From assembly GCF_040807025.1 (NCBI RefSeq), contig NC_090981.1, positions 12,501 to 76,500 on the forward strand: a stretch of 64,000 bases of DNA, in the 5' to 3' direction. Positions within the stretch are counted from its first letter, which is position 1, and the number at the start of each line of letters is the position of its first letter. The DNA comes from Struthio camelus. Its lineage: Eukaryota > Chordata > Aves > Struthioniformes > Struthionidae. Of this stretch, positions 1,785-36,873 are shown in pieces. The translations under genes were made by a program, and so were the position numbers. The notes below the pieces were generated by a model. It saw nothing but the letters and a program-made list of their open reading frames with translations, was not told where the DNA came from and searched no databases.

Positions 1785-3080
1785 CTAGAGGACTGACACA
1801 AGGAGATCTCAGGATGGCTCCTGAGGGCACAAGAGGGATGCTAAGAGGGCTGAAAGACCAATGCAGCATTCTGGGGCACAACAAAGAATAATCCAGAATA
1901 AAATAAAGGGGTTCCTCACAAGTCTGCAGGAGCAACAGAAGTCTATGCAACACAACAAAGCTCTACAGAGGACTCCAGATTGGATTACACATTTCCAATG
2001 GAGACTAGAAAACAATAAAAACAAACCAGTAGAGAGTAACTAGAGTTTCCCCAAGGGTCCAAGGGAAAACAAGGCTGCTAAGACCACTAGATGATGAACA
2101 GAGAGCACTGTTTAGAAAAGTTCTGAGGACACTACAACAATCCTAAAGGATTGACAGAGCCAAAAGATGGCTCTGGGAAAAAGGCAAGCTGAAAGAGAAT
2201 TCCAGAGAGCACTAGAGGGGTGCTAAAAAGCCTAGATGGCCAACAGAGGTCTGTGGGGGAAAGATAAAAGGCCAAAAAAGTGGGGGGGGAGAAAGAAAAA
2301 CTGAGGGCTGTTAAAGGGACTGCAGGACCAACACAGAGCTCCATGGGGGCGACAAAAGACTCCAGAAACATTTTAAGGACATTACAGGGGTCCTAAATCA
2401 GTCTAGAGGACCAAGATACACCTCTGGAAAATTAGGAAGGCCATAAAAAGACTCCAGAGCACACTACAGGGGTTCTAAGGGGTCCACATGGCCAAAAAGA
2501 GACTCTGAGGTGCAAGGAAGCCCTCAAGAGGAGTTCAGATGTGACTACATGGCTCAACAGGGGTCTGGAGGGCGAGAAGACAGCTCTGGGGAACAAAGAA
2601 GGACAAAGAGAGGTCCTGAATGCACAAGACCACCAAGCACAAAAAACTTCTAGGGCACAATTTTGGCCAAAAGAGGGTTCCATGGCAGACTAGAGAGCTA
2701 CAAAGACAGCTGGAGGGCCAAATGAGGGCTTCAGGACACAACAAAGGCCTCCAGAGGGCTTTGGGAGGGACTACATGGGCTGGAAGTCCAAAAAAAAGCT
2801 CTGTGGCACTAGGAAGGCTGGAAAAGGAGTGCATATCACACTAGAAAGGTACTAAGGGGCCCAGGAAGCCAACAGAGGTCTGCAGGGAAAGATAAAGGAA
2901 CAAATGGGGAGAGACCAGGCAAGAACAGAGAGCTTTCAACAGGGACAAAGAACTAAAACATGTCTCTGGGCATCCCAAAGGTCTCCAGAGGGCTCCTGAG
3001 GGGAAGAGAGAAGTCCTAAGAGCTCTGGGGAGCCCAAAGAAAAGGAAAACTGCCAAAGTAGTCCCAAGGGCCCTCAAGGG
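1785..3080 (+). repeat. Left edge: diverged single monomers
   Basis: Roughly 80-bp units are recognisable (for example around 2,440-2,520 and 2,690-2,770), but they differ widely from one another and do not form a higher-order unit. They share the CTCTGGGG box and the 'GAGGGCCAAnAGA' segment with the core. This is the diverged-edge arrangement expected when unequal exchange homogenises only the interior. Confidence 0.85.
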
Positions 3081-4009
3081 GTGGGCCTAGCCCCAAAAAT
3101 GCCTCTGGGGAAGAGTGTGGAGAGCTTAACAGGGGATTCTGGGGCACCTAGACAGCGCCTAAGGGGTCTGGAGGGCCGGAAGACAGCTCTGGAACAACCC
3201 AAAGGTCTCCCCAGGGGCTCTGAGGTGGATAGAGCAGTGCTAAGAGCTGTGGGGGGCCTGAAGACAGCTCTGGGGCACAGGGAAACCTGCAAGAGTAGTC
3301 CCGAGGGCACCGGAGGGGGCCCTCAAGGCGTGTGCCTAGCCAAAAGACAACTCTGGGGAAGGAGGAGGAGCTGAGGAGGGGGTCTGGGCCACCTAGACAG
3401 TGCCTAAGGGGTCTGGAGGGCCAAAAGAGTGCTCTGGAACACCCCAAAGGTCTCCCCAGGGGCTCATGAGGTGGACCGAGCAGTGCTAAGAGCTCTGGGG
3501 GGCACCCACAAAGCTCTGGGGCACAGGGAGAGGTCTCCCCAGGGGCTCTGAGGTGGATAGAGCAGTGCTAAGAGCTCTGCGGGGCCCGAAGACAGCTCTG
3601 GGGCACAGGGAAACCTGCAAGAGTAGTCCCGAGGGCACCAGAGGGGGCCCTCAAGACGTGTGCCTAGCCAAAAGACAACTCTGGGGAAGGAGGAAGACCT
3701 CTGGAGGGGGTCTGGGCCACCTAGACAGTGCCTAAGGGGCCCAGAGAGCCAAAAGAGTGCTCTGGGGCACCCCAAAGGTCTCCCCAGGGGCTCATGAGGT
3801 GGATAGAGCAGTGCTAAGAGCTCTGCGGGGCCCGAAGACAGCTCTGGGGCACAGGGAAACCTGCAAGAGTAGTCGCGAGGGAACCAGAGGGGGCCCTCAA
3901 GGCGTGTGCCTAGCCAAAAGACAACTCTGGGGAAGGAGGAGGAGCTGAGGAGGGGGTCTGGGCCACCTAGACAGTGCCTAAGGGGTCTGGGGGGCACGAG
4001 GACAGCTCT

Positions 4010-7000
4010 GGAACACCCCAAAGGTCTCCCCAGGGGCTCTGAGGTGGATAGAGCAGTGCTAAGAGCTGTGGGGGGCCTGAAGACAGCTCTGGGGCACAGG
4101 GAAACCTGCAAGAGTAGTCCCGAGTGCACCAGAGGGGGCCCTCAAGGGTTTACATGGCCCAAAACCCCACTCTGGGGAAGGAGGAGGAGCTGAGGAGGGG
4201 GTCTGGGCCACCTAGACAGTGCCTAAGGGGTCCGGAGGGCCGGAAGACAGCTCTGAGGCACAACGAGTACTGCAATTGTAGTTCAGAAGTCACGCGAGGG
4301 CTTCTAAGGGCTCTCCATGGTCACAAAGAGACTCTGGGGAAGAAGGAAGAGCTCTGGAGGGGGTCTGGGCCACCTAGACCATTCCTGAGGGCTCAGCACA
4401 AGCAAGAGACAGCTCTGGGCAGCAAGGAAGAGCCAAAGAGTGGTGCGGAGTGCTCTAGAGCGGTGCAAAGGGGCCTAGGGAGCCAAGATCCAGCTCTGGG
4501 GCAGAGGGAAACCTGCAAGAGTAGTCCCGAGGGCACCAGAGGGGGCCCTCAAGGGTTTACATGGCCCAAAACCCCACTCTAGGGAAGGAGGAAGAGCTGA
4601 GGAGGGGGTCTGGGCCACCTAGACAGTGCCTAAGGGGTCAGGAGGGCCGGAAGACAGCTCTGGGGCACAACGAGTTCTGCAACTGTAGTTCCGAAGTCAT
4701 GAGAGGGCTTCTAAGGGCTCTCCATGGCCACAAAGAGACTCTGGGGAAGAAGACAGACCTCTGGAGGAGGTCTGGGCCACCTAGACAGTGCCTAAGGGGT
4801 CCAGAGAGCCAAAAGAGTGCTCTGGGGCACCCCAAAAGGTCTCCCCAGGGGCTCTGAGGTGGATAGAGCAGGGCTAAGAGCTCTGCGGGGCCCAATGACA
4901 GCTCTGGGGCACAGGGAAACCTGCCAGAGTAGTCCCGAGGGCACCGGAGGGGGCCCTCAAGGCGTGTGCCTAGCCAAAAGTCAACTCTGGGGAAGGAGGA
5001 GCTGAGGAGGGGGTCTGGGCCACCTAGACAGTGCCTAAGGGGTCCGGAGGGCCAAAAGAGAGCTCTGGGGCACAACGAGTACTGCAATTGTAGTTCAGAA
5101 GTCACGAGAGGGCTTCTAAGGGCTCTCCGTGGCCACAAAGAGACTCTGGGGAAGAAGAAAGACCTCTGGAGGAGGTCTGGGCCACCTAGACCGTTCCTGA
5201 GGGCTCGGCACAAGCAAGAGACAGGTCTGGGCATCAAGAAAGAGCCAAAGAGTGGTGCGGAGTGCTCTAGAGCGATGCCAAGGGACCTAGGGAGCCAAGA
5301 TCCAGCTCTGGGGCACAGGGAAACCTGCCAGAGTAGTCCCGAGGGCACCGGAGGGGGCCCTCAAGACGTGTGCCTAGCCAAAAGACAACTCTGGGGAAGG
5401 AGGAGGAGCTGAGGAGGGGGTCTGGGCCACCTAGACAGTGCCTAACGGGTCCGGAAGGCCAAAAGAGTGCTGTGGGGCATCCCAAAGGTCTCCCCAGGGG
5501 CTCTGAGGTGGATCGAGCAGTGCTAAGAGCTGTGGGGGGCCCAAAGACAGCTCTGGGGCACAGGGAAACCTGCAAGAAGAGTCCCGAGGGCACCAGAGGG
5601 GGCCCTCAAGGCGTGTGCCTAGCCAAAAGACAACTCTGGGGAAGGAGGAGGAGCTGAGGAGGGGGTCTGGGCCACCTAGACTGTTCCCGAGGGCTCGGCG
5701 CGAGCAAGAGACAGGTCTGGGCAGCAATGAAGAGCCAAAGAGTGGTGCAGAGTGCTCTAGAGCCTTGCCAAGGGGCCTAGGGAGCCAAGATCTAGCTCTC
5801 GGTCACAGGGAAACCTGCAAGAGTAGTGCCGAGGGCACCAGAGGGGGCCCTCAAGGGTTTACATGGCCCAAAACCCCACTCTAGGGAAGGAGGAGGAGCT
5901 GAGGAGGGGGTCTGGGCCACCTAGACAGTGCCTAAGGGGTCCGGAGGGCCGGAAGACAGCTCTGAGGCACAACTAGTACTGCAATTGTAGTTCAGAAGTC
6001 ACGAGAGGGCTTCTAAGGGCTCTCCATGGCCACAAAGAGACTCTGGGGAAGAAGGAAGACCTCTGGAGGGGGTCTGGGCCACCTAGACAGTGCCTAAGGG
6101 GCCCAGAGAGCCAAAAGAGTGCTCTGGGGCACCCCAAAGGTCTCCCCAGGGGCTCTGAGGTGGATAGAGCAGTGCTAAGAGCTCTGCGGGGCCTGAAGAC
6201 AGCTCTGGGGCACAGGGAAACCTGCCAGAGTAGTCCCGAGGGCACCAGAGGGGGCCCTCAAGGCGTGTGCCTAGCCAAAAGACAACTCTGGGGAAGGAGG
6301 AGGAGTTGAGGAGGGGGTCTGGGCCACCTAGACAGTGCCTAAGGGGTCTGGGGGGCACGAGGACAGCTCTGGAACACCCCAAAGGTCTCCCCAGGGGCTC
6401 TGAGGTGGATAGAGCAGTGCTAAGAGCTGTGGGGGGCCCAAAGACAGCTCTGGGGCACAGGGAAACCTGCCAGAGTAGTCCCGAGTGCACCAGAGGGGGC
6501 CCTCAAGGGTTTACATGGCCCAAAACCCCACTCTAGGGAAGGAGGAGGAGCTGAGGAGGGGGTCTGGGCTACCTAGAAAGTGCCTAAGGGGTCCGGAGGG
6601 CCGGAAGACAGCTCTGGGGCACAACGAGTACTGCAATTGTAGTTCAGAAGTCACGAGAGGGCTTCTAAGGGCTCTCCATGGTCACAAAGAGACTCTGGGG
6701 AAGAAGGAAGAGCTCTGGAGGGGGTCTGGGCCACCTAGACCATTCCTGAGGGCTCAGCACAAGCAAGAGACAGCTCTGGGCAGCAAGGAAGAGCCAAAGA
6801 GTGGTGCGGAGTGCTCTAGAGCGGTGCCAAGGGGCCTAGGGAGCCAAGATTCAGCTCTGGGGCAGAGGGAAACCTGCAAGAGTAGTCCCGAGGGCACCAG
6901 AGGGGGCCCTCAAGGGTTTACATGGCCCAAAACCCCACTCTAGGGAAGGAGGAAGAGCTGAGGAGGGGGTCTGGGCCACCTAGACAGTGCCTAAGGGGTC

Positions 7001-10000
7001 AGGAGGGCCAAAAGAGAGCTCTGGGGCACAACGAGTTCTGCAACTGTAGTTCCGAAGTCATGAGAGGGCTTCTAAGGGCTCTCCATGGCCACAAAGAGAC
7101 TCTGGGGAAGAAGGAAGACCTCTGGAGGGGGTCTGGCCACCTAGACAGTGCCTAAGGGGTCCGGAAGGCCAAAAGAGTGCTCTGGGGCACCCCAAAAGGT
7201 CTCCCCAGGGGCTCTGAGGTGGATAGAGCAGTGCTAAGAGCTCTGCGTGGCCCAAAGACAGCTCTGGGGCACAGGGAAACCTGCCAGAGTAGTCGCGAGG
7301 GCATCAGAGGGGGCCCTCAAGGCGTGTGCCTAGCCAAAAGACAACTCTGGGGAAGGAGGAGGAGCTGAGGAGGGGGTCTGGGCCACCTAGACAGTGCCTA
7401 AGGGGTCCGGAGGGCCAAAAGAGAGCTCTGGGGCACAACGAGTACTGCAATTGTAGTTCAGAAGTCACGAGAGGGCTTCTAAGGGCTCTCCGTGGCCACA
7501 AAGAGACTCTGGGGAAGAAGAAAGACCTCTGGAGGAGGTCTGGGCCACCTAGACCGTTCCTGAGGGCTCGGCACAAGCAAGAGATAGCTCTGGGCAGCAA
7601 GAAAGAGCCAAAGAGTAGTGCGGAGTGCTCTAGAGCGGTGCAAAGGGGCCTAGGGAGCCAAGATCCAGCTCTGGGGCAGAGGGAAACCTGCAAGAGTAGT
7701 CCCGAGGGCCCTCAAGGGGTGGGCCTAGCCCCAAAAATGCCTCTGGGGAAGAGTGTGGAGAGCTTAACAGGGGATTCTGGGGCACCTAGACAGCGCCTAA
7801 GGGGTCTGGAGGACTGGAAGACAGCTCTGGGGCATTCCAAAGATCTCCCCAGGGGCTCTGAGGTGGATAGAGCAGTGCTAAGAGCTGTGGGGGGCCAGAA
7901 GACAGCTCTGGGGCACAGGGAAACCTGCCAGAGTAGTCCCGAGGGCACCAGAGGGGGCCCTCAAGGCGTGTGCCTAGCCAAAAGACAACTCTGGGGAAGG
8001 AGGAGGAGCTGAGGAGGGGGTCTGGGCCACCTAGACAGTGCCTAAGGGGTCCGGAGGGCCAAAAGAGAGCTCTGGGACACCCCAAAGGTCTCCCCAGGGG
8101 CTCTGAGGTGGATAGAGCAGTGCTAAGAGCTGTGGGGGGCCTGAAGACAGCTCTGGGGCATAGGGAAACCTGCCAGAGTAGTCCCGAGGGCACCAGAGGG
8201 GGCCCTCGAGGCGTGTGCCTAGCCAAAAGACAACTCTGGGGAAGGAGGAGGAGCTGAGGAGGGGGTCTGGGCCACCTAGACAGTGCCTAAGGGGTCCGGA
8301 GGGCCGGAAGACAGCTCTGAGGCACAACTAGTACTGCAATTGTAGTTCAGAAGTCACGAGAGGGCTTCTAAGGGCTCTCCATGGTCACAAAGAGACTCTG
8401 GGGAAGAAGGAAGAGCTCTGGAGGGGGTCTGGGCCACCTAGACCGTTCCCGAGGGCTCGGCGCGAGCAAGAGACAGGTCTGGGCAGCAAGGAAGAGCCAA
8501 AGAGTGGTGCAGAGTGCTCTAGAGCGGTGCCAAGGGACCTAGGGAGCCAAGATCCAGCTCTGGGGCAGAGGGAAACCTGCAAAAGTAGTCCCGAGGGCCC
8601 TCAAGGGGTGGGCCTAGCCCCAAAAATGCCTCTGGGGAAGAGTGTGGAGAGCTTAACAGGGGATTCTGGGGCACCTAGACAGCGCCTAAGGGGTCTGGAG
8701 GGCCGGAAGACAGCTCTGGAACACCCCAAAGGTCTCCCCAGGGGCTCTGAGGTGGATAGAGCAGTGCTAAGAGCTGTGGGGGGCCTGAAGACAGCTCTGG
8801 GGCACAGGGAAACCTGCCAGAGTAGTCGCGAGGGCACCAGAGGGGGCCCTCAAGGCTAGTGCCTAGCCAAAAGACAACTCTGGGGAAGGAGGAGGAGCTG
8901 AGGAGGGGGTCTGGGCCACCTAGACAGTGCCTAAGGGGTCCGGAAGGCCAAAAGAGAGCTCTGGGGCATCCCAAAGGTCTCCCCAGGGGCTCTGAGGTGG
9001 ATAGAGCAGTGCTAAGAGCTGTGGGGGGTCCGAAGACAGCTCTGGGGCACAGGGAAACCTGCCAGAGTAGTCGCGAGGGCACCAGAGGGGGCCCTCAAGG
9101 CGTGTGCCTAGCCAAAAGACAACTCTGGGGAAGGAGGAGGAGCTGAGGAGGGGGTCTGGGCCACCTAGACTGTTCCCGAGGGCTCGGCGCGAGCGAGAGA
9201 CAGGTCTGGGCAGCAAGGAAGAGCCAAAGAGTGGTGCGGAGTGCTCTAGAGCGGTGCCAAGGGACCTAGGGAGCCAAGATCCAGCTCTGGGGCACAGGGA
9301 AACCTGCAAGAGTAGTCCCGAGGGCACCGGAGGGGGCCCTCAAGGCGTGTGCCTAGCCAAAAGACAACTCTGGAGAAGGAGGAGGAGCTGAGGAGGGGGT
9401 CTGGGCCACCTAGACAGTGCCTAACGGGTCCGGAAGGCCAAAAGAGAGCTCTGGGACACCCCAAAAGGTCTCCCCAGGGGCTCTGAGGTGGATAGAGCAG
9501 TGCTAAGAGCTGTGGGGGGCCTGAAGACAGCTCTGGGGCATAGGGAAACCTGCCAGAGTAGTCCCGAGGGCACCGAAGGGGGCCCTCAAGGCGTGTGCCT
9601 AGCCAAAAGACAACTCTGGGGAAGGAGGAGGAGCTGAGGAGGGGGTCTGGGCCACCTAGACAGTGCCTAACGGGTCCGGAAGGCCAAAAGAGAGCTCTGG
9701 GAAACCCCAAAGGTCTCCCCAGGGGCTCTGAGGTGGATAGAGCAGTGCTAAGAGCTGTGGGGGGCCTGAAGACAGCTCTGGGGCACAGGGAAACCTGCAA
9801 GAGTAGTCCCGAGGGCACCAGAGGGGGCCCTCAAGGCGTGTGCCTAGCCAAAAGACAACTCTGGGGAAGGAGGAGGAGCTGAGGAGGGGGTCTGGGCTAC
9901 CTAGAAAGTGCCTAAGGGGTCCGGAGGGCCGGAAGACAGCTCTGAGGCACAACGAGTACTGCAATTGTAGTTCAGAAGTCACGAGAGGGCTTCTAAGGGC

Positions 10001-13000
10001 TCTCCATGGTCACAAAGAGACTCTGGGGAAGAAGAAAGACCTCTGGAGGGGGTCTGGGCCACCTAGACCGTTCCTGAGGGCTCGGCACAAGCAAGAGATA
10101 GCTCTGGGCAGCAAGAAAGAGCCAAAGAGTGGTGCGGAGTGCTCTAGAGCGGTGCCAAGGGGCCTAGGGAGCCAAGATCCAGCTCTGGGGCAGAGGGAAA
10201 CCTGCAAGAGTAGTCCCGAGGGCCCTCAAGGGGTGGGCCTAGTCCCAAAAATGCCTCTGGGGAAGAGTGTGGAGAGCTTAACAGGGGATTCTGGGGCACC
10301 TAGACAGCGCCTAAGGGGTCTGGAGGACTGGAAGACAGCTCTGGGGCATTCCAAAGGTCTCCCCAGGGGCTCTGAGGTGGATAGAGCAGTGCTAAGAGCT
10401 GTGGGGGGCCCGAAGACAGCTCTGGGGCACAGGGAAACCTGCCAGAGTAGTCGCGAGGGCACCAGAGGGGGCCCTCAAGGCTAGTGCCTAGCCAAAAGAC
10501 AACTCTGGGGAAGGAGGAGGAGCTGAGGAGGGGGTCTGGGCCACCTAGACAGTGCCTAAAGGGGTCTGGAGGGCCAAAAGAGTACTCTGGGGCACCCCAA
10601 AGGTCTCCCCAGGGGCTCTGAGGTGGATAGAGCAGTGCTAAGAGCTGTGGGGGGCCTGAAGACAGCTCTGGGGCACAGGGAAACCTGCCAGAGTAGTCGC
10701 GAGGGCACCAGAGGGGGCCCTCAAGGCGTGTGCCTAGCCAAAAGACAACTCTGGGGAAGGAGGAGGAGCTGAGGAGGGGGTCTGGGCCACCTAGACTGTT
10801 CCCGAGGGCTCGGCGCGAGCAAGAGACAGGTCTGGGCAGCAAGGAAGAGCCAAAGAGTGGTGCGGAGTGCTCTAGAGCGGTGCCAAGGGACCTAGGGAGC
10901 CAAGATCCAGCTCTGGGGCACAGGGAAACCTGCCAGAGTAGTCCCGAGGGCACCAGAGGGGGCCCTCAAGGCGTGTGCCTAGCCAAAAGACAACTCTGGG
11001 GAAGGAGGAGGAGCTGAGGAGGGGGTCTGGGCCACCTAGACTGTTCCCGAGGGCTCGGCGCGAGCAAGAGACAACTCTGGGCAGCAATGAAGAGCCAAAG
11101 AGTGGTGCAGAGTGCTCTAGAGCCTTGCCAAGGGGCCTAGGGAGCCAAGATCTAGCTCTCGGTCACAGGGAAACCTGCAAGAGTAGTCCCGAGGGCACCA
11201 GAGGGGGCCCTCAAGGGTTTACATGGCCCAAAACCCCACTCTAGGGAAGGAGGAGGAGCTGAGGAGGGGGTCTGGGCCACCTAGACAGTGCCTAAGGGGT
11301 CCGGAGGGCCGGAAGACAGCTCTGAGGCACAACTAGTACTGCAATTGTAGTTCAGAAGTCACGAGAGGGCTTCTAAGGGCTCTCCATGGCCACAGAGACT
11401 CTGGGGAAGAAGGAAGAGCTCTGGAGGGGGTCTGGGCCACCTAGACAGTGCCTAAGGGGCCCAGAGAGCCAAAAGAGTGCTCTGGGGCACCCCAAAGGTC
11501 TCCCCAGGGGCTCTGAGGTGGATAGAGCAGTGCTAAGAGCTCTGCGGGGCCAGAAGACAGCTCTGGGGCATCCCAAAAATCTCCCCAGGGGCTCTGAGGT
11601 GGATAGAGCAGTGCTAAGAGCTCTGCGGGGCCAGAAGACAGCTCTGGGGCACAGGGAAACCTGCCAGAGTAGTCCCGAGGGCACCAGAGGGGGCCCTCAA
11701 GGCGTGTGCCTAGCCAAAAGACAACTCTGGGGAAGGAGGAGGAGTTGAGGAGGGGGTCTGGGCCACCTAGACAGTGCCTAAGGGGTCTGGGGGGCACGAG
11801 GACAGCTCTGGAACACCCCAAAGGTCTCCCCAGGGGCTCTGAGGTGGATAGAGCAGTGCTAAGAGCTGTGGGGGGCCCAAAGACAGCTCTGGGGCACAGG
11901 GAAACCTGCAAGAGTAGTCCCGAGTGCACCAGAGGGGGCCCTCAAGGGTTTACATGGCCCAAAACCCCACTCTGGGGAAGGAGGAGGAGCTGAGGAGGGG
12001 GTCTGGGCTACCTAGAAAGTGCCTAAGGGGTCCGGAGGGCCGGAAGACAGCTCTGAGGCACAACGAGTACTGCAATTGTAGTTCAGAAGTCACGAGAGGG
12101 CTTCTAAGGGCTCTCCATGGCCACAAAGAGACTCTGGGGAAGAAGGAAGAGCTCTGGAGGGGGTCTGGGCCACCTAGACCATTCCTGAGGGCTCAGCACA
12201 AGCAAGAGACAGCTCTGGGCAGCAAGGAAGAGCCAAAGAGTGGTGCGGAGTGCTCTAGAGCGGTGCAAAGGGGCCTAGGGAGCCAAGATCCAGCTCTGGG
12301 GCAGAGGGAAACCTGCAAGAGTAGTCCCGAGGGCACCAGAGGGGGCCCTCAAGGGTTTACATGGCCCAAAACCCCACTCTAGGGAAGGAGGAAGAGCTGA
12401 GGAGGGGGTCTGGGCCACCTAGACAGTGCCTAAGGGGTCAGGAGGGCCGGAAGACAGCTCTGGGGCACAACGAGTTCTGCAACTGTAGTTCCGAAGTCAT
12501 GAGAGGGCTTCTAAGGGCTCTCCATGGCCACAAAGAGACTCTGGGGAAGAAGGAAGACCTCTGGAGGGGGTCTGGCCACCTAGACAGTGCCTAAGGGGTC
12601 CAGAGAGCCAAAAGAGTGCTCTGGGGCACCCCAAAAGGTCTCCCCAGGGGCTCTGAGGTGGATAGAGCAGTGCTAAGAGCTGTGGGGGGCCAGAAGACAG
12701 CTCTGGGGCACAGGGAAACCTGCCAGAGTAGTCGCGAGGGCATCAGAGGGGGCCCTCAAGGCGTGTGCCTAGCCAAAAGACAACTCTGGGGAAGGAGGAG
12801 GAGCTGAGGAGGGGGTCTGGGCCACCTAGACAGTGCCTAACGGGTCCGGAAGGCCAAAAGAGAGCTCTGGGACACCCCAAAGGTCTCCCCAGGGGCTCTG
12901 AGGTGGATAGAGCAGTGCTAAGAGCTGTGGGGGGCCCGAAGACAGCTCTGGGGAACAGGGAAACCTGCAAGAGTAGTCCCGAGGGCACCAGAGGGGGCCC

Positions 13001-22000: not shown

Positions 22001-25000
22001 TCTGAGGTGGATAGAGCAGTGCTAAGAGCTGTGGGGGGCCTGAAGACAGCTCTGGGGCACAGGGAAACCTGCAAGAGTAGTCCCGAGGGCACCAGAGGGG
22101 GCCCTCGAGGCGTGTGCCTAGCCAAAAGACAACTCTGGGGAAGGAGGAGGAGTTGAGGAGGGGGTCTGGGCCACCTAGACAGTGCCTAAGGGGTCCAGAG
22201 GGCCAAAAGAGTGCTGTGGGGCATCCCAAAGGTCTCCCCAGGGGCTCTGAGGTGGATAGAGCAGTGCTAAGAGCTGTGGGGGGCCCGAAGACAGCTCTGG
22301 GGCACAGGGAAACCTGCCAGAGTAGTCGCGAGGGCACCAGAGGGGGCCCTCAAGGCGTGTGCCTAGCCAAAAGACAACTCTGGGGAAGGAGGAGGAGCTG
22401 AGGAGGGGGTCTGGGCCACCTAGACTGTTCCCGACGGCTCGGCGCAAGCAAGAGACAGGTCTGGGCAGCAATGAAGAGCCAAAGAGTGGTGCAGAGTGCT
22501 CTAGAGCCTTGCCAAGGGGCCTAGGGAGCCAAGATCTAGCTCTCGGTCACAGGGAAACCTGCAAGAGTAGTGCCGAGGGCACCAGAGGGGGCCCTCAAGG
22601 GTTTACATGGCCCAAAACCCCACTCTAGGGAAGGAGGAGGAGCTGAGGAGGGGGTCTGGGCCACCTAGACAGTGCCTAAGGGGTCCGGAGGGCCGGAAGA
22701 CAGCTCTGAGGCACAACTAGTACTGCAATTGTAGTTCAGAAGTCACGAGAGGGCTTCTAAGGGCTCTCCATGGTCACAAAGAGACTCTGGGGAAGAAGGA
22801 AGAGCTCTGGAGGGGGTCTGGGCCACCTAGACCATTCCTGAGGGCTCAGCACAAGCAAGAGACAGCTCTGGGCAGCAAGAAAGAGCCAAAGAGTGGTGCG
22901 GAGTGCTCTAGAGCGGTGCCAAGGGGCCTAGGGAGCCAAGATCCAGCTCTGGGGCAGAGGGAAACCTGCAAGAGTAGTCCCGAGGGCCCTCAAGGGGTGG
23001 GCCTAGCCCCAAAAATGCCTCTGGGGAAGAGTGTGGAGAGCTTAACAGGGGATTCTGGGGCACCTAGACAGCGCCTAAGGGGTCTGGAGGGCCGGAAGAC
23101 AGCTCTGGAACACCCCAAAGGTCTCCCCAGGGGCTCTGAGGTGGATAGAGCAGTGCTAAGAGCTGTGGGGGGCCTGAAGACAGCTCTGGGGCACAGGGAA
23201 ACCTGCCAGAGTAGTCGCGAGGGCACCAGAGGGGGCCCTCAAGGCGTGTGCCTAGCCAAAAGACAACTCTGGGGAAGGAGGAGGAGCTGAGGAGGGGGTC
23301 TGGGCCACCTAGACAGTGCCTAACGGGTCCGGAAGGCCAAAAGAGAGCTCTGGGGCATTCCAAAGGTCTCCCCAGGGGCTCTGAGGTGGATAGAGCAGTG
23401 CTAAGAGCTGTGGGGGGCCCGAAGACAGCTCTGGGGCACAGGGAAACCTGCCAGAGTAGTCGCGAGGGCACCAGAGGGGGCCCTCAAGGCGTGTGCCTAG
23501 CCAAAAGACAACTCTGGGGAAGGAGGAGGAGCTGAGGAGGGGGTCTGGGCCACCTAGACTGTTCCCGAGGGCTCGGCGCGAGCAAGAGACAGCTCTGGGC
23601 AGCAAGGAAGAGCCAAAGAGTGGTGCGGAGTGCTCTAGAGCGGTGCCAAGGGACCTAGGGAGCCAAGATCCAGCTCTGGGGCACAGGGAAACCTGCCAGA
23701 GTAGTCCCGAGGGCACCGGAGGGGGCCCTCAAGGCGTGTGCCTAGCCAAAAGACAACTCTGGAGAAGGAGGAGGAGCTGAGGAGGGGGTCTGGGCCACCT
23801 AGACAGTGCCTAACGGGTCCGGAAGGCCAAAAGAGAGCTCTGGGACACCCCAAAAGGTCTCCCCAGGGGCTCTGAGGTGGATAGAGCAGTGCTAAGAGCT
23901 GTGGGGGGCCTGAAGACAGCTCTGGGGCATAGGGAAACCTGCCAGAGTAGTCCCGAGGGCACCGGAGGGGGCCCTCAAGGCGTGTGCCTAGCCAAAAGAC
24001 AACTCTGGGGAAGGAGGAGGAGCTGAGGAGGGGGTCTGGGCCACCTAGACAGTGCCTAAGGGGTCCGGAGGGCCGGAAGACAGCTCTGGGGCACAACGAG
24101 TACTGCAATTGTAGTTCAGAAGTCACGAGAGGGCTTCTAAGGGCTCTCCATGGCCACAAAGAGACTCTGGGGAAGAAGGAAGAGCTCTGGAGGGGGTCTG
24201 GGCCACCTAGACCATTCCTGAGGGCTCAGCACAAGCAAGAGACAGCTCTGGGCAGCAAGGAAGAGCCATAGAGTGGTGCAGAGTGCTCTAGAGCGGTGCC
24301 AAGGGGCCTAGGGAGCCAAGATCTAGCTCTTGATTCACAGGGAAACCTGCCAGAGTAGTCCCGAGGGCACCAGAGGGGGCCCTCAAGGGTTTACATGGCC
24401 CAAAACCCCACTCTAGGGAAGGAGGAGGAGCTGAGGAGGGGGTCTGGGCCACCTAGACAGTGCCTAAGGGGTCAGGAGGGCCGGAAGACAGCTCTGAGGC
24501 ACAATTAGTACTGCAATTGTAGTTCAGAAGTCACGAGAGGGCTTCTATGGGCTCTCCATGGCCACAGAGACTCTGGGGAAGAAGGAAGACCTCTGGAGGG
24601 GGTCTGGGCCACCTAGACCATTCCTGAGGGCTCAGCACAAGCAAGAGACAGCTCTGGGCAGCAAGGAAGAGCCATAGAGTGGTGCAGAGTGCTCTAGAGC
24701 GGTGCCAAAGGGCCTAGGAAGCCAAGATCCAGCTCTGGGGCACAGGGAAACCTGCCAGAGTAGTCCCGAGGGCACCAGAGGGGGCCCTCAAGGCATGTGC
24801 CTAGCCAAAAGACAACTCTGGGGAAGGAGGAGGAGCTGAGGAGGGGGTCTGGGCCACCTAGACTGTTCCCAAGGGATCGGCCCGAGCAAGAGACAACTCT
24901 GGGCAGCAATGAAGAGCCAAAGAGTGGTGCAGAGTGCTCTAGAGCCTTGCCAAGGGGCCTAGGGAGCCAAGATCCAGCTCTGGGTCACAGGGAAACCTGC

Positions 25001-25998
25001 AAGAGTAGTCCCGAGGGCACCAGAGGGGCCCTCAAGGGTTTACATGGCCCAAAACCCCACTCTAGGGAAGGAGGAAGAGCTGAGGAGGGGGTCTGGGCCA
25101 CCTAGACAGTGCCTAAGGGGTCCGGAGGGCCGGAAGACAGCTCTGAGGCACAACTAGTACTGCAATTGTAGTTCAGAAGTCACGAGAGGGCTTCTAAGGG
25201 CTCTCCATGGCCACAAAGAGACTCTGGGGAAGAAGAAAGACCTCTGGAGGGGGTCTGGGCCACCTAGACAGTGCCTAAGGGGCCCAGAGAGCCAAAAGAG
25301 TGCTCTGGGGCACCCCAAAGGTCTCCCCAGGGGCTCTGAGGTGGATAGAGCAGTGCTAAGAGCTGTGGGGGGCCAGAAGACAGCTCTGGGGCACAGGGAA
25401 ACCTGACAGAGTAGTCCCGAGGGCACCAGAGGGGGCCCTCAAGGCTAGTGCCTAGCCAAAAGTCAACTCTGGGGAAGAAGGAGGAGCGGAGGAGGGGGTC
25501 TGGGCCACCTAGACTGTTCCCGAGGGCTCGGCCCGAGCAAGAGACAGGTCTGGGCAGCAATGAAGAGCCAAAGAGTGGTGCAGAGTGCTCTAGAGCCTTG
25601 CCAAGGGGCCTAGGGAGCCAAGATCCAGCTCTGGGGCACAGGGAAACCTGCAAGAGTAGTCCCGAGGGCACCAGAGGGGGCCCTCAAGGGTTTACATGGC
25701 CCAAAACCCCACTCTAGGGAAGGAGGAGGAGCTGAGGAGGGGGTCTGGGCCACCTAGACAGTGCCTAACAGGTCCGGAGGGCCAAAAGAGAGCTCTGGGA
25801 CACCCCAAAGATCTCCCCAGGGGCTCTGAGGTGGATAGAGCAGTGCTAAGAGCTGTGGGGGGCCCGAAGACAGCTCTGGGACAGAGGGAAACCTGCCAGA
25901 GTAGTGCCGAGGGCACCAGAGGGGGCCCTCAAGGCGTGTGCCTAGCCAAAAGACAACTCTGGGGAAGGAGGAGGAGCTGAGGAGGGGGTCTGGGCCAC
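21930..25998 (+). repeat. 4.2-kb tandem segmental duplication, copy 1
   Basis: Landmarks recur downstream at 4,069 bp in the left part (22,114 and 26,183; 22,916 and 26,985), then at 4,222 bp (23,984 and 28,206; 24,797 and 29,019), and at 4,220 bp near the right end (25,264 and 29,484). The change from 4,069 to 4,222 means about 153 bp more sequence in copy 2. The 24.8 and 29.0 kb stretches translate identically over 102 codons. Confidence 0.85.
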
Positions 25999-28900
25999 CT
26001 AGACAGTGCCTAAGGGGTCTGGAGGGCCGGAAGACAGCTCTGGAACACCCCAAAGGTCTCCCCAGGGGCTCTGAGGTGGATAGAGCAGTGCTAAGAGCTC
26101 TGCGGGGCCTGAAGACAGCTCTGGGGCACAGGGAAACCTGCAAGAGTAGTCCCGAGGGCACCAGAGGGGGCCCTCGAGGCGTGTGCCTAGCCAAAAGACA
26201 ACTCTGGGGAAGGAGGAGGAGTTGAGGAGGGGGTCTGGGCCACCTAGACAGTGCCTAAGGGGTCCAGAGGGCCAAAAGAGTGCTGTGGGGCATCCCAAAG
26301 GTCTCCCCAGGGGCTCTGAGGTGGATAGAGCAGTGCTAAGAGCTCTGCGGGGCCCGAAGACAGCTCTGGGGCACAGGGAAACCTGCAAGAGTAGTCCCGA
26401 GGGCACCAGAGGGGGCCCTCAAGGCGTGTGCCTAGCCAAAAGACAACTCTGGGGAAGGAGGAGGAGCTGAGGAGGGGGTCTGGGCCACCTAGACTGTTCC
26501 CGAGGGCTCGGCGCGAGCAAGAGACAACTCTGGGCAGCAATGAAGAGCCAAAGAGTGGTGCAGAGTGCTCTAGAGCCTTGCCAAGGGGCCTAGGGAGCCA
26601 AGATCTAGCTCTCGGTCACAGGGAAACCTGCAAGAGTAGTCCCGAGGGCACCAGAGGGGGCCCTCAAGGGTTTACATGGCCCAAAACCCCACTCTAGGGA
26701 AGGAGGAGGAGCTGAGGAGGGGGTCTGGGCCACCTAGACAGTGCCTAAGGGGTCCGGAGGGCCGGAAGACAGCTCTGAGGCACAACTAGTACTGCAATTG
26801 TTGTTCAGAAGTCACGAGAGGGCTTCTAAGGGCTCTCCATGGTCACAAAGAGACTCTGGGGAAGAAGGAAGAGCTCTGGAGGGGGTCTGGGCCACCTAGA
26901 CCATTCCTGAGGGCTCAGCACAAGCAAGAGACAGCTCTGGGCAGCAAGGAAGAGCCAAAGAGTGGTGCGGAGTGCTCTAGAGCGGTGCCAAGGGGCCTAG
27001 GGAGCCAAGATCCAGCTCTGGGGCAGAGGGAAACCTGCAAGAGTAGTCCCGAGGGCCCTCAAGGGGTGGGCCTAGCCCCAAAAATGCCTCTGGGGAAGAG
27101 TGTGGAGAGCTTAACAGGGGATTCTGGGGCACCTAGACAGCGCCTAAGGGGTCTGGAGGGCCGGAAGACAGCTCTGGAACACCCCAAAGGTCTCCCCAGG
27201 GGCTCTGAGGTGGATAGAGCAGTGCTAAGAGCTGTGGGGGGCCTGAAGACAGCTCTGGGGCACAGGGAAACCTGCCAGAGTAGTCCCGAGGGCACCAGAG
27301 GGGGCCCTCAAGGCGTGTGCCTAGCCAAAAGACAACTCTGGGGAAGGAGGAGGAGCTGAGGAGGGGGTCTGGGCCACCTAGACTGTTCCCGAGGGCTCGG
27401 CGCGAGCGAGAGACAGGTCTGGGCAGCAAGGAAGAGCCAAAGAGTGGTGCGGAGTGCTCTAGAGCGGTGCCAAGGGGCCTAGGGAGCCAAGATCCAGCTC
27501 TGGGGCACAGGGAAACCTGCCAGAGTAGTCCCGAGGGCACCAGAGGGGGCCCTCAAGGCGTGTGCCTAGCCAAAAGACAACTCTAGAGAAGGAGGAGGAG
27601 TTGAGGAGGGGGTCTGGGCCACCTAGACAGTGCCTAAGGGGTCCGGAGGGCCAAAAGAGAGCTCTGGGGCACAACGAGTACTGCAATTGTAGTTCAGAAG
27701 TCACGAGAGGGCTTCTAAGGGCCCTCCGTGGCCACAAAGAGACTCTGGGGAAGAAGAAAGACCTCTGGAGGGGGTCTGGGCCACCTAGACCGTTCCTGAG
27801 GGCTCGGCACAAGCAAGAGATAGCTCTGGGCAGCAAGAAAGAGCCAAAGAGTGGTGCGGAGTGCTCTAGAGCGGTGCGAAGGGGCCTAGGGAGCCAAGAT
27901 CCAGCTCTGGGGCACAGGGAAACCTGCAAGAGTAGTCCCGAGGGCCCTCAAGGGGTGGGCCTAGCCCCAAAAATGCCTCTGGGGAAGAGTGTGGAGAGCT
28001 TAACAGGGGATTCTGGGGCACCTAGACAGCGCCTAAGGGGTCTGGAGGGCCGGAAGACAGCTCTGGAACACCCCAAAGGTCTCCCCAGGGGCTCTGAGGT
28101 GGATAGAGCAGTGCTAAGAGCTGTGGGGGGCCTGAAGACAGCTCTGGGGCACAGGGAAACCTGCCAGAGTAGTCGCGAGGGCACCGGAGGGGGCCCTCAA
28201 GGCGTGTGCCTAGCCAAAAGACAACTCTGGGGAAGGAGGAGGAGCTGAGGAGGGGGTCTGGGCCACCTAGACAGTGCCTAAGGGGTCCGGAGGGCCGGAA
28301 GACAGCTCTGGGGCACAACGAGTACTGCAATTGTAGTTCAGAAGTCACGAGAGGGCTTCTAAGGGCTCTCCATGGCCACAAAGAGACTCTGGGGAAGAAG
28401 GAAGAGCTCTGGAGGGGGTCTGGGCCACCTAGACCATTCCTGAGGGCTCAGCACAAGCAAGAGACAGCTCTGGGCAGCAAGGAAGAGCCATAGAGTGGTG
28501 CAGAGTGCTCTAGAGCGGTGCCAAGGGGCCTAGGGAGCCAAGATCTAGCTCTTGATTCACAGGGAAACCTGCCAGAGTAGTCCCGAGGGCACCAGAGGGG
28601 GCCCTCAAGGGTTTACATGGCCCAAAACCCCACTCTAGGGAAGGAGGAGGAGCTGAGGAGGGGGTCTGGGCCACCTAGACAGTGCCTAAGGGGTCAGGAG
28701 GGCCGGAAGACAGCTCTGAGGCACAATTAGTACTGCAATTGTAGTTCAGAAGTCACGAGAGGGCTTCTAAGGGCTCTCCATGGCCACAGAGACTCTGGGG
28801 AAGAAGGAAGACCTCTGGAGGGGGTCTGGGCCACCTAGACCATTCCTGAGGGCTCAGCACAAGCAAGAGACAGCTCTGGGCAGCAAGGAAGAGCCATAGA

Positions 28901-30220
28901 GTGGTGCAGAGTGCTCTAGAGCGGTGCCAAAGGGCCTAGGAAGCCAAGATCCAGCTCTGGGGCACAGGGAAACCTGCCAGAGTAGTCCCGAGGGCACCAG
29001 AGGGGGCCCTCAAGGCATGTGCCTAGCCAAAAGACAACTCTGGGGAAGGAGGAGGAGCTGAGGAGGGGGTCTGGGCCACCTAGACTGTTCCCAAGGGATC
29101 GGCCCGAGCAAGAGACAACTCTGGGCAGCAATGAAGAGCCAAAGAGTGGTGCAGAGTGCTCTAGAGCCTTGCCAAGGGGCCTAGGGAGCCAAGATCCAGC
29201 TCTGGGTCACAGGGAAACCTGCAAGAGTAGTCCCGAGGGCACCAGAGGGGCCCTCAAGGGTTTACATGGCCCAAAACCCCACTCTAGGGAAGGAGGAAGA
29301 GCTGAGGAGGGGGTCTGGGCCACCTAGACAGTGCCTAAGGGGTCCGGAGGGCCGGAAGACAACTCTGAGGCACAACTAGTACTGCAATTGTAGTTCAGAA
29401 GTCACGAGAGGGCTTCTTAGGGCTCTCCATGGCCACAGAGACTCTGGGGAAGAAGGAAGAGCTCTGGAGGGGGTCTGGGCCACCTAGACAGTGCCTAAGG
29501 GGCCCAGAGAGCCAAAAGAGTGCTCTGGGGCACCCCAAAGGTCTCCCCAGGGGCTCTGAGGTGGATAGAGCAGTGCTAAGAGCTGTGGGGGGCCAGAAGA
29601 CAGCTCTGGGGCACAGGGAAACCTGCCAGAGTAGTCGCGAGGGCACCAGAGGGGGCCCTCAAGGCGTGTGCCTAGCCAAAAGTCAACTCTGGGGAAGAAG
29701 GAGGAGCGGAGGAGGGGGTCTGGGCCACCTAGACTGTTCCCGAGGGCTCGGCCCGAGCAAGAGACAGGTCTGGGCAGCAATGAAGTGCCAAAGAGTGGTG
29801 CGGAGTGCTCTAGAGCGGTGCCAAGGGGCCTAGGGAGCCAAGATCCAGCTCTGGGGCACAGGGAAACCTGCAAGAGTAGTCCCGAGGGCACCAGAGGGGG
29901 CCCTCAAGGGTTTACATGGCCCAAAACCCCACTCTAGGGAAGGAGGAGGAGCTGAGGAGGGGGTCTTGGCCACCTAGACAGTGCCTAACGGGTCCGGAGG
30001 GCCAAAAGAGAGCTCTGGGACACCCCAAAGATCTCCCCAGGGGCTCTGAGGTGGATAGAGCAGTGCTAAGAGCTGTGGGGGGCCCGAAGACAGCTCTGGG
30101 ACAGAGGGAAACCTGCCAGAGTAGTGCCGAGGGCACCAGAGGGGGCCCTCAAGGCGTGTGCCTAGCCAAAAGACAACTCTGGGGAAGGAGGAGGAGCTGA
30201 GGAGGGGGTCTGGGCCACCT
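25999..30220 (+). repeat. 4.2-kb tandem segmental duplication, copy 2
   Basis: Tandem partner of the preceding copy. The left part around 26-27.3 kb is more diverged or rearranged than the right part (28.2-30.1 kb), which is almost identical to 24.0-25.95 kb. It ends close to the boundary of the homogenised core. Confidence 0.85.
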
Positions 30221-30438
30221 AGACAGCGCCTAAGGGGTCTGGAGGGCCGGAAGACAGCTCTGGAACACCCCAAAGGTCTCCCCAGGGGCTCTGAGGTGGA
30301 TAGAGCAGTGCTAAGAGCTGTGGGGGGCCTGAAGACAGCTCTGGGGCACAGGGAAACCTGCCAGAGTAGTCCCGAGGGCACCAGAGGGGGCCCTCAAGGC
30401 GTGTGCCTAGCCAAAAGACAACTCTGGGGAAGAAGGAG

Positions 30439-32018
30439 GACCTCCGTGGCAGCCTCTGGGGGAACCAGAACAGTCCCAAGGGGTCTGGAGGGCCTAAAGA
30501 GGACTCTGGGGCACAGCGTTGTGTTCAAGAGGCGTCCCGAGCATTCTAGAGGGCTGCTAGGAGGGCCGGAGGGCCACAGCGGGGCTCCAGGACAAACCAA
30601 GGTCTCCCCAGGGCTTCTGAAGGGACTAGAGTGGGGCTAAAGGGGCTGGACGTCCAAAAGACACCTCTGGGGCCCAAAGGAGGCGGCAAGAGTAGGCCAG
30701 AGCACACTGGAGGGGGCCTTCAAGGGGTTTATGGGGGCCAGGAGACGTCTGTGGTGGGAAGAAGGTGGCCTAAAGGGGGCTCCAGAGCAGAAGAGAGGGC
30801 TGCTGAGGGGGCTGGAGGGCCAACCCAGGGCTCCAGAGGGCTTGTGAGTTGACTCCAGGGGGCCTAAGGGGTCTCAAGGGCCAACATACAGCCTCGGGGA
30901 AGAAGACAGGCCAAAAGAGTAGCCCAGAACACACTAGAGGGATGCTGAGGAGACCCGATGGCCAACAAATTAAAACCTGGGGAACAAGGGTGACCTCAGG
31001 AGGGCTTCAGAGGCAACTAGACAGTTCCTGAGGGGTGCGGAGGGCTGGCAGACAGCTCTGGGCAGCAAGGAAGACACAAAGAGTGGTCCAGAGTGCCCTG
31101 GACTGGTGCTAAGGGGCCTGAGTAGCCAAGATACAGCTTTAGGGCTGACAGAATGTTGAAAGAGTAGGCTAGAGCGCACTAGAGGACCGCTTGGGCCTCC
31201 ATGTCCCTGAAAAATGACTCTAGGGAACAAGGAAGACCTGAGGAGGGGTTCTGAGCAGATAAACAGGCTCCTGTAGGTGCTGGAGGGCCAGAAGACAGCT
31301 CTGGAGCACAACAAGCATCCGAGGACTGGTTCTGAGCAACAAATGGCTCTGGAAGGTTTCTGAAGGGACTAGAGGGCCAACAGAGGTCTGTGGGTCAAAA
31401 TTCAAGGCCAAATTGGAGAGTAGGGCAGCCTAGAGGGGTGCTAAGGGCTCCAGAGGGTTAACACAGAACTCTGGGGTACAACGAAATCCTACAGGGCAGT
31501 TCCAAGGGGACTACAGGGGTCCTAAGGGGTCAAAAGGGCCTGACTGTTCTGGGGCAGAAAGAAGTTTGGAAGAGTCATTCAGAGTGCACTAGAGGGATTC
31601 TCAGGGGTCTAACATTGCCAAAAAAAGACTCTGGGGAACATGGAAAGCCTCAGGATCAGTCCATATGTAATCTCAGGGGCGCTCAGGGGTCAGGAGGGCC
31701 AAAAGACAGCTCTGTGGCATAATAAAGGCCTCTAGAGGGGTTCAGGGGTGACTGGAAAGGTTCTAGTGGGTCTAGAGGGCCAATAGAGCTCTCTGGGGCA
31801 CAGGAAAGGCCAAAAGATGGGTACCGAGTTCACTAGAAGGGTCATAAGGGGGTTATATGACCAAAGGAAGCCTCTGGGAACAAAGGTCCCAAAGGATCCT
31901 GAGGGGAAAAGAGAGGTCCTAAGGGATCTGGAGGGCTAAAAGAGGGCTCCGGGACACAATTTTGGCCAAAAGAGACACCTAGAGTAGACTAGGGAGGTTG
32001 TAAGTGGGCTAGAAGACC

Positions 32019-32051
<33 letters not shown>

Positions 32052-33615
32052 GGCACAATGAAGGCAAAAGGAGGGGTTCTGATGGGACTGGAGTGGTCCT
32101 CTGAGAGCTAGAAGGCTAACAGAGGGCTCCTGCACAACGCAGGCCAAAAGAGGGGTACTGAAGGAATTAGGTCCTAAGAGAGCTACTGGACCCCAAGAGG
32201 GCTCTGGGGCACTACAAAGGCCTCAGGAGGGGTTCTGAGGGTACTAGAGGGCTCCTAAGGACTCTACGCACCCAAGAGAGCCTCTGGTGCACAATGGAGG
32301 GCTTCTGAGAGGATTGGAGCAGGCCTAGGGGGACTAGACATCAAAGAGAGGCCTCTAGGGCACAGTGAAGGCTTTGGGAGCAGTTTTGAGTTAACTAGAT
32401 TAGAAAATGGAAGAGTCTTGAGAAGATTAGAGGGCATACATTGGGTTTTAGGATGGCATGTCAGAAGGATGTCTCCAGTTCAAATCAAGGGCTCAGGGAA
32501 GGGTTGTTAGGGAGCCCAAGGGCTAAAGGAGACATTCTGTAGGGATTAGAGGGCAAATGTGGGGATCCTGAGGGGAAGAGACAGCACACAGTGGGCACTG
32601 GGGCACACCAAAATGGAAAAGGACTGGTTCTGATGGGACTAGGTTGCAAACAGCCCTGGAGCGCAACAGGAGAACACAGGGTTCTGGGGTGCTTTGAAGA
32701 ACAAACATGGGGGTTCTGAAGGGAGTAGAGGGTAATTGAGAAGGCGTGAGGCAGGCTGAAAGGAAATGGAGGGCTATGATACGCACTAAGAGGCAAACAA
32801 GGAGGACAGAAAGGGATCTGAGAGAAACAGAACTCCCAAGGAGGAGCTGAGGTGGAATTTTGGGGCATTTAGGGGGTACTGGAACACAGTGAAGGCTAAC
32901 AGTTTTGAGACTACGTGCCACATAGATTGATTTTGAGCAGACTAGAGAACACAGAGAGCTCTGAGGTAAAAAAAAACAAAAAAAAAAAACAAAAAAGGAA
33001 GATAGAAGTGTCTTGAGGGGACTGGAAGGAAAAGGGACCTGATGGGATAGAGGGTGCACAGAATGGTCATAGGGATAGGGCATAGAGAGGACTCTGTGAT
33101 GCAATCAATGGAAAAGGAGGGCTTCAGAGCACACTGAAAAGGGTGCAATGAACGCATAGGGTTCTGGAGAGCCCTCAAGGCAAACACAGGTGTCCTGAGG
33201 GGAGTGTGTGGCAATCAGAGGGGTTCTGATGGGACTAAGAGGCAGTGAGATGGACCCTAAGGGGCTCAGAGGGCAAACAGAGGCATCCTGAGAGGACTAG
33301 AGGGAAAACCAAAGGCTCTGGGATGCACTAATAGCAAATGGAGGGGTTTTGAGGGAACTAGAGGGAAGAGAGAAGGGACTTAATAGGACAAGAGAACAAA
33401 CATAGGAGTCTTGATGCTACCGGAGGGCCCACAGACACTAAATGGGAGAGTAATCGTGCAGGAACTAGAAAGCAGCAAAGACTTCTGAGGGGACAGGAGA
33501 ACAAATGGAGTGTCTTGGAGCACACCTGAAGGCAAATAGATAGGTCCTGAAGGAACTAGGGAGCAAATGGGTGAGTCCTGGGGGGACGAGGCAGAAAACT
33601 GAAGGTTCTGGGACA
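30439..33615 (+). repeat. Right edge: diverged single monomers
   Basis: Divergence increases towards the right. Monomers with 'CTCTGGGGCACA' remain clear to about 32.4 kb; beyond that they shrink to a loose 'GAGGGCAAACAnAGG...TTCTGAGGGGACTAGAGG' pattern. An A26 run (32,019-32,044) and A-rich stretches near 32,968-32,997 interrupt it. The last monomer-like text ends at about 33,613, next to a minus-strand splice-donor consensus. Confidence 0.82.
32019..32044. repeat. Poly(A) run, 26 A
   Basis: Uninterrupted A26 inside a diverged satellite monomer. It is most simply an internal expansion of the A-rich 'GGCCAAAAGA' segment of the monomer. Confidence 0.9.
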
Positions 33616-35935: not shown

Positions 35936-35939
35936 AGAG

Positions 35940-36773: not shown

Positions 36774-36779
36774 TTTATT
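36774..36779 (-). terminator. Poly(A) signal AATAAA (minus strand)
   Basis: TTTATT on the plus strand gives AATAAA on the minus strand, about 100 bp beyond the stop codon of the candidate terminal exon at 36,874-37,054. Confidence 0.4.
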
Positions 36780-36873
36780 GTTTTACTGCACAGAAGCAAC
36801 ACCTACCTGGGAGAGAGTCTGCCATGGAGCTCGGTGCTAGCATGCCTCTCCTTACCCTGTGACACCTGAAGAG

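What the first reader, a model, noticed from the sequence alone, without database searches (positions are those of the whole stretch)
1785..33615. Large hierarchical satellite with diverged edges and a homogenised core
Three levels of tandem order are visible: ~80-bp monomers, a 245-bp trimer (81+87+77 bp) plus other unit classes, and kilobase-scale duplications. The edges are diverged monomers. This is the architecture of centromeric alpha-type satellites, but here it lies within 12 kb of a borealin-family gene. I do not recognise the family.
Basis: seen in the sequence. Interest (0 to 1): 0.78.

Follow-up and report, generated by a model that had tools for sequence, protein, structure and literature searches.

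The report
Ostrich chromosome-end satellite with ordered units
The repeat block is real and belongs to a large satellite DNA family found near the ends of many chromosomes of what appears to be an ostrich genome, pointing the same way at each end where it was seen, which suggests that chromosome ends copy this DNA from one another.

Summary
The array is real. Its core, 3103-30421, is 336 contiguous ~81-bp monomers in six classes; 245 bp is the trimer D81+B83+G81 and 407 bp adds a dimer. Edges are diverged monomers; kilobase duplications exist. A ~10-bp period underlies the monomer. The host is a bird, almost certainly ostrich. The window starts 12.5 kb into a 70-Mb contig. The family was seen on 24 of 56 sampled contig ends, 24 of 24 with the purine-rich strand running inward; telomere repeats were read on 14 of them. 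Unit order is the same elsewhere (590 of 595 class steps). The telomere-side edge with its unique flank is one block shared by four other ends, 97-99.5% alike there and 91-95% to the window, so its divergence predates that spread. Best reading: a chromosome-end satellite homogenised by exchange between ends. A role at centromeric ends of acrocentric chromosomes is not excluded: 18 of 22 contigs sampled at both ends carry it at exactly one. The borealin neighbour is a diverged extra copy.

The parts
737..1784 (+). Telomere-side non-repetitive flank, part of a block shared with other chromosome ends
   Evidence: 93.9-94.6% to C19L, C7L, C10L, C13L; those four are 98.0-99.2% alike
1785..3102 (+). 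Telomere-side edge: 15 diverged ~81-bp monomers plus a D and a partial B monomer; same shared block
   Evidence: Identity of the 15 to the generic unit 0.46-0.77; colinear copies on 4 other arms, 90.8-91.1% in this part
3103..30421 (+). Homogenised core: 336 contiguous monomers of 72-84 bp, classes G/H, B/b, D, A, E, F
3531..12635 (+). First copy of the 9.1-kb tandem duplication
   Evidence: 3531-10550 vs 12636-19655, 99.43%; 10535-13345 vs 19395-22204, 98.9%
12636..21494 (+). Second copy, one ~245-bp unit shorter; end inferred from the 8859-bp lag
23511..26220 (+). 2.7-kb duplication, copy 1 (copy 2 at 27742-30440)
   Evidence: 97.0%
27742..30440 (+). 2.7-kb duplication, copy 2
30422..32766 (+). 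Centromere-side edge of diverged monomers; nearest classes of the first 11 are G A D B G A A G E A G, close to core order but several by small margins
32767..33615 (+). Outermost edge, purine-rich, 31-bp and 10-bp periods
35930..36350 (+). 31-bp-periodic purine-rich stretch, weakly related to the outer edge
   Evidence: z 7.5-7.9 at lag 31; profile z 3.7; weak blastn hits
36093..38729 (+). Centromere-side flank duplicated ~40 kb from the right end of contig C41, inverted as expected there
   Evidence: 87.7% over 1225 and 78.6% over 1368 aligned positions
38600..40226 (+). Further flank pieces matching the right ends of C3 (38600-39300) and C41 (39729-40226); no satellite was seen at those two ends where sampled
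   Evidence: 89.6% over 703; 85.7% over 504; satellite scores
42834..43161 (+). Island of the same monomer family, first part
   Evidence: profile score 125; 70-71% to both edges
43681..43902 (+). Island, second part, separated from the first by an LTR-like insert of ~540 bp
   Evidence: profile score 159; 71-74% to both edges
45080..49490 (-). Diverged borealin-like copy (context, not part of the array)
   Evidence: Pfam PF10444 and PF10512; tblastn of the ostrich borealin P0004

Best explanation
This is one array of a chromosome-end (subtelomeric) satellite family of the ostrich. Shown: an ~81-bp monomer with a ~10-bp internal period; six ordered monomer classes; arrays near one or both ends of 21 of the 22 contigs C1-C22 and of C40; extents from under 75 kb to about 400 kb if continuous between samples; one orientation to the contig end at every positive end; the same class order on five other contigs; and a telomere-side border block shared by five ends. 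Inferred: chromosome ends exchange this DNA by ectopic recombination or break-induced copying. Such exchange is viable only when telomere polarity is kept, which would explain the orientation and the shared border. Unequal exchange inside arrays then re-amplifies short runs of old, already diverged monomers into homogenised cores and kilobase duplications. The window's end, probably of the W chromosome, seems to exchange less and carries its own monomer types F and b.
For: Location: the window is C40:12501-76500 of a 70,392,303-base contig; the search reported 131 matches, those listed lying near ends of six contigs (lengths). Sampling: 24 of 56 arms positive, 15 of 34 left ends all + and 9 of 22 right ends all -. 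Six of the 24 (C3L, C19L, C40L, C8R, C9R, C11R) came from that search; blind sampling gave 18 of 50. Two-sided p 1.2e-7 for 24 of 24, if ends are independent, which copying between ends would violate. Telomere repeats read on 14 of the 24. Class order: 590 of 595 steps in six stretches on five other contigs are of the nine types allowed in the window, the five exceptions all D-D. Block 737-3099 found in 4 of 4 fetched tiles that crossed a telomere-side border, 97.2-99.5% alike among the four. A monomers on C3, C8, C9 and C11 are 0.993-1.000 alike within and between contigs, and in B and G identity between contigs is about that within. Left and right edges share one consensus (0.88), and edge monomers are about as far from it as the core classes.
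Against: Only one own-genome search was answered and it scored 40 of 895 candidates, so internal copies are not excluded. 32 of 56 sampled arms were negative, mostly at one depth. The one-end bias (18 of 22, p 0.006) is not predicted by free exchange among all ends. For D monomers between-contig identity falls to 0.87-0.89 for some pairs. Isolation of the window's copy is mixed: 148 sites separate it from the other four border blocks (without an outgroup they cannot be assigned to its side), and it stands apart in E, G and H but not in A and B; in 31 short samples some arms (C1L, C2L, C4R, C13L, C17R) have more monomers nearer the window's consensus than the pooled one. The proximal-flank duplicons on C3R and C41R came without the satellite where sampled. 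Exchange itself was not observed.
Confidence: 0.68

Rival explanations
1. It is the satellite of the short-arm (centromeric) ends of acrocentric chromosomes, the ostrich counterpart of chicken CNM: telomere, short distal flank, then a 0.1-0.4 Mb higher-order array at or beside the centromere.
For: 18 of 22 contigs sampled at both ends carry it at exactly one end (p 0.006). The largest arrays reach 400-420 kb (C4L, C3L). Chicken acrocentric centromeres are 0.2-0.8 Mb long, with 41-bp CNM repeats that often form higher-order repeats beside a tiny short arm (PMC9974502, passages).
Against: C1 and C4 carry arrays at both ends. Several arrays end before 75-130 kb. No strict CENP-B-box match in the array (only at 58687), a weak point since such a box is not required. 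No centromere position or CENP-A data were available.
Confidence: 0.22
2. A purely local tandem expansion beside a gene, like the 'sequence stuttering' described for avian dot chromosomes.
For: The array adjoins a gene-like copy, and such local expansions are described (PMC12954441, passages).
Against: The same classes in the same order occur on other contigs; the contig is 70 Mb long.
Confidence: 0.03
3. The array is selected for a job at chromosome ends (for example nuclear RNA or fork-directional replication), which fixes its orientation and ~10-bp phase.
For: One orientation at 24 of 24 positive arms; the chicken subtelomeric repeat PO41 is transcribed from both strands (PMC4301066, passages).
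Against: Orientation follows from exchange alone; core CpG is depleted and by eye no sub-motif stood out in 43 edge and island monomers. No expression data.
Confidence: 0.07

Closest known systems
PO41 of chicken and quail (41-bp subtelomeric repeat)
   Same: GC-rich (PO41 63%; core windows here 59-63%), tandem, at chromosome ends, in birds (PMC3091757 and PMC4301066, passages)
CNM of chicken (41-bp centromeric repeat with higher-order repeats)
   Same: Higher-order arrays of similar size near a telomere (PMC9974502, passages)
   Different: CNM higher-order units hold 26-98 copies; here cassettes of 2-3 monomers are shuffled; centromere binding untested; arrays at both ends of C1 and C4
Primate alpha satellite (features recalled)
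   Same: Monomer classes, higher-order units, homogenised core with diverged flanks
   Different: No fixed n-mer order, half the monomer length, found near chromosome ends, one edge block shared between chromosomes
DnoSat families of emu
   Same: Ratite satellites; 23 of 24 families over 50% GC, unit lengths 31-5881 bp (PMC11036779, passages)
   Different: Sequences not compared: not held here

Membership tests
Subtelomeric satellite | Long tandem arrays of one family close to telomeres of several chromosomes | tested here: met
   24 of 56 sampled arms; telomere repeats read on 14 of the 24
Subtelomeric satellite | Absent or rare at internal sites | tested here: inconclusive
   131 matches reported, those listed near ends, but 40 of 895 candidates scored; own sampling was of ends only
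Centromeric satellite (alpha or CNM type) | Higher-order organisation | tested here: met
   Class grammar and 245/407-bp units
Centromeric satellite (alpha or CNM type) | CENP-A occupancy or position at the primary constriction | not testable with these tools
   No chromatin or cytogenetic data
Centromeric satellite (alpha or CNM type) | CENP-B box (motif recalled; not required of all centromeric satellites) | tested here: not met
   No strict match in the array
PO41 | 41-bp monomer | tested here: not met
   81-bp monomer; lag 41 is weak beside 81 and 20 (core z 4.3, inner right edge z 3.0)
PO41 | Sequence identity to PO41 | not tested
   No PO41 sequence in the passages seen
Dot-chromosome sequence stuttering | Strictly local expansion | tested here: not met
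   Same classes on other contigs
Known named satellite (Repbase/Dfam) | Sequence match | not testable with these tools
   Libraries not held; three unit strings occur in 0 papers of the library

The most novel reading that the evidence does not exclude
A single higher-order satellite marks one preferred end of nearly every large and mid-sized ostrich chromosome, is kept nearly identical by exchange between non-homologous ends, and has one partly isolated copy at the tip of the W chromosome. That copy would serve as a built-in control for measuring exchange, and the preferred end may be the centromeric end.
Probability: 0.35. Interest if true: 0.75.

Novelty: new member of a known kind. Interest (0 to 1): 0.55.

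Why it matters
What looks like a centromere-style array next to a cell-division gene is, on this evidence, a chromosome-end satellite beside a worn duplicate gene. The border block gives an alignable marker at several chromosome ends, so how often non-homologous ends exchange DNA can be measured, with the probable W copy as comparison. The one-end bias poses a direct question about the centromeres of acrocentric bird chromosomes.

Tried and rejected
Rejected or without weight: GC-biased conversion as the cause of the GC-rich core (rare variants at non-CpG sites: 49 S>W over 369 S sites, 29 W>S over 251 W sites; 9 S>W over 24 CpG sites; no bias towards GC). G-quadruplex function (0 canonical motifs in the core against 58.7 in shuffles, but a tandem array has few independent units). 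Coding potential: a 236-aa array ORF gave no hit at E 0.001 among 1764 candidates, and monomers of 81, 83 and 84 bp shift frame. Rfam at gathering thresholds and ARAGORN: none. An exact 23-base unit string in viral and prokaryote contigs: 0. The idea that the window is wholly outside the exchange pool was weakened by 31 short samples and by classes A and B. Literature: 10 searches seen as listings and 'find' passages from seven papers; nothing seen describes this family, but subscription papers and supplements were not searched. Passages of PMC3797529 (a bean subtelomeric satellite) said nothing on orientation.

Full report
What is there. The window holds a tandem array on the + strand from about 1785 to 33615. 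Cut at CTCTGGG, the core 3103-30421 is 336 contiguous monomers with at most 2 inserted bases each against their class profile. Average-linkage clustering of 244 monomers of 78-85 bp gave six classes and one singleton, which I dropped: G 81, B 83, D 81, A 81, E 81, F 84 bp. Variants are H (a G that follows A) and b (a 72-bp B before F). Class consensuses are 58-82% alike, H included; mean within-class identity is 0.885-0.987. The cassettes are DBG 51, AG 33, EBG 28 and EBF 9, with four single D, one F and one B left over. 245 bp is D+B+G and 407 bp is that plus A+H. Nine step types make up 332 of 335 steps; the other three are D-D.

Below the monomer there is a ~10-bp period. Lags 10, 20 and 30 or 31 exceed 200 dinucleotide shuffles by z 3.7-8.0 in the left edge and both parts of the right edge, and no lag exceeds z 3 in a background stretch. 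In the profile of edge and island monomers, lag 10 has permutation p 0.001 and lags 20 and 30 have p 0.0002, the smallest that 5000 permutations allow. The monomer looks like eight decamers of the type NCTAGAGGGG; that reading is mine.

Above it are kilobase duplications: 9.1 kb in tandem (99.4% over 7.0 kb and 98.9% over 2.8 kb) and 2.7 kb at 97.0%. Of 44 mismatches in the two blocks compared, 34 lie in the first kilobase and 10 after it. Reads would be needed to exclude an assembly duplication.

Edges. The left and right edges share one consensus (0.88). Edge monomers average 0.65-0.68 to the opposite edge's consensus; core class consensuses are 0.64-0.77 to the edge consensuses. Monomers are thus about equally far from the root, and I read the core as a re-amplified run of old monomers. 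The first 11 right-edge monomers are nearest to G A D B G A A G E A G, close to core order but several by small margins. Two islands, 42834-43161 and 43681-43902, belong to the family, on the same strand. The only minus-strand signal in the window was a weak score (48.7) over the GC-rich stretch 35188-35790.

Host. A hand-joined borealin-like translation gave 99 hits, mostly bird borealins with some mammals. The best, P0001, is named borealin-like [Struthio camelus australis]. Its six pieces match the window at 92-100%, mismatching only at piece ends and at residue 2. The window is thus ostrich or extremely close. Ostrich borealin P0004 (302 aa) matches the window copy at 42-86% per piece, with residues 75-113 and 158-182 unmatched; the piece at 47.9 kb abuts a CR1-derived stretch. 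I read this as a decaying duplicate.

Genome. One own-genome search was answered. The window is C40:12501-76500 of an assembly of 1,451,902,618 bases in 262 contigs, and 131 matches were reported; those listed lie on C3, C8, C9, C11, C19 and C40, near contig ends (lengths). It scored 40 of 895 candidates. I then sampled ends. Positive samples of 500-700 bases score 391-590; the unrelated ones reach at most 70. Among 200-base samples, positives score 110-173 and one, C17R at 75 kb, is ambiguous at 41 and not counted. Left ends positive, 15 of 34: C1, C2, C3, C4, C7, C10, C12, C13, C14, C15, C19, C20, C21, C22, C40, all +. Right ends positive, 9 of 22: C1, C4, C5, C8, C9, C11, C16, C17, C18, all -. 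Six of these were known, so blind sampling gave 18 of 50. C1-C22 are positive at an end except C6 (four samples); C23-C30, C38 and C39 were negative but read at one place on the left end only; C41 was negative at both ends. One 24-kb contig (C42) was negative and is not counted. Most negative arms were read at one depth, so absence is not shown.

Telomere hexamers were read on 14 of the 24 positive arms; of the other ten, five were masked at the place read and five showed none there. The first 12.5 kb of C40 is masked, so the window's own telomere was not seen.

Array sizes vary. C3L is positive in samples from 40 to 420 kb and negative at 450; C4L positive from 22 to 400 and negative at 500; C10L positive from ~24 to 220 and negative at 270. 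C1R is positive to 130 and negative at 220; C12L, C13L and C4R positive at 75 and negative at 130; C1L, C2L, C5R and C7L negative at 75 kb.

Order and exchange. With one switch cost between all classes, six stretches on five other contigs give 590 of 595 class steps (15 steps touching the generic edge model left out) in the nine window types, all five exceptions D-D. The 31 short samples were not in that count; four show D-D and one (C20L) a D-G step at its end. A monomers on C3, C8, C9 and C11 are 0.993-1.000 alike within and between contigs; B and G show similar identity within and between; D is uneven (0.853-0.973 within, 0.872-0.946 between those contigs); C19L is lower in most classes. 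The window stands apart in E (0.946 within, 0.871-0.901 to the others), G and H, not in A and B. F and b occur 10 and 9 times in the window and not in those six stretches; one partial F call appears in the C22L sample.

The block 737-3099 is colinear on C19L, C7L, C10L and C13L (to 3064 on C13L), four of four fetched tiles that crossed a telomere-side border; the C4L tile lay wholly inside the array. The four copies are 0.980-0.992 alike in the unique part and 0.972-0.995 in the edge part; the window is 0.939-0.946 and 0.908-0.911 to them. At 148 of 2345 gap-free columns the window alone differs, against 18, 14, 8 and 5 for the others; without an outgroup these 148 cannot be assigned to the window's side. 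In 31 short samples several arms (C1L, C2L, C4R, C13L, C17R) have more monomers nearer the window's consensus, so isolation is partial or array-specific.

The centromere-side flank is also a patchwork: pieces of 36093-40226 match the right ends of C41 and C3, inverted as expected there, but the satellite was not seen at those two ends where sampled.

Which chromosome. C40 (70.4 Mb) and C41 (89.9 Mb) follow the 0.44-Mb C39. One C40 right-end sample is 97% to C41's right end, though in a tandem repeat; a second, 92 kb from the end, had no match in the C41 tiles. C41's left end showed no family at 30, 38-47 and 90 kb. I infer C40 is W and C41 is Z; no sex-linked gene was tested.

Mechanism. One orientation, shared border and shared order fit exchange between chromosome ends followed by unequal exchange within arrays. 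The one-end bias (both 2, one 18, none 2 of 22; p 0.006) is not explained by this and keeps the acrocentric short-arm reading alive.

Noticed in passing
L011 8330-9967 (C3 left end); also the C14L, C22L and C40R samples: A 17-bp purine-rich tandem repeat (AAAGAGAGGGAAAGAGC/T) close to contig ends (beside the telomere on C3), on the same strand relative to the end at the four ends where it was seen.
   Followed up: no
window 34800-35100: A 60-bp tandem of about 2.2 copies with YY1-like and ZNF143-like motifs (recalled names) in a CpG-richer stretch, 1.3 kb beyond the array: possible bidirectional promoter.
   Followed up: no
window 43140-43670: An LTR-like insert with an internal 39-bp direct repeat splits the satellite island; target-site duplication not clear.
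   Followed up: no
window 52100-56200: A long but frame-broken CR1 LINE with endonuclease and reverse transcriptase similarity; related pieces at 47.9-48.5 and 60.6-60.8 kb.
   Followed up: no
window 49546-49714: A perfect (TGTC)42 tract just upstream of the first borealin-like exon.
   Followed up: no
window 3103-30421: No canonical G-quadruplex motif in 27 kb of G-rich DNA, against 58.7 expected in shuffles; few independent units, so weak.
   Followed up: partly
window 37280-37690: A separate purine-rich tandem repeat, periods 20 and 40, purine-rich on the same strand as the satellite.
   Followed up: partly
window 42258-42629: A piece matching, inverted, a sample 92 kb from the right end of C40 (79% over 385) and a sample beside the C11 right-end array (89% over 94).
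   Followed up: no
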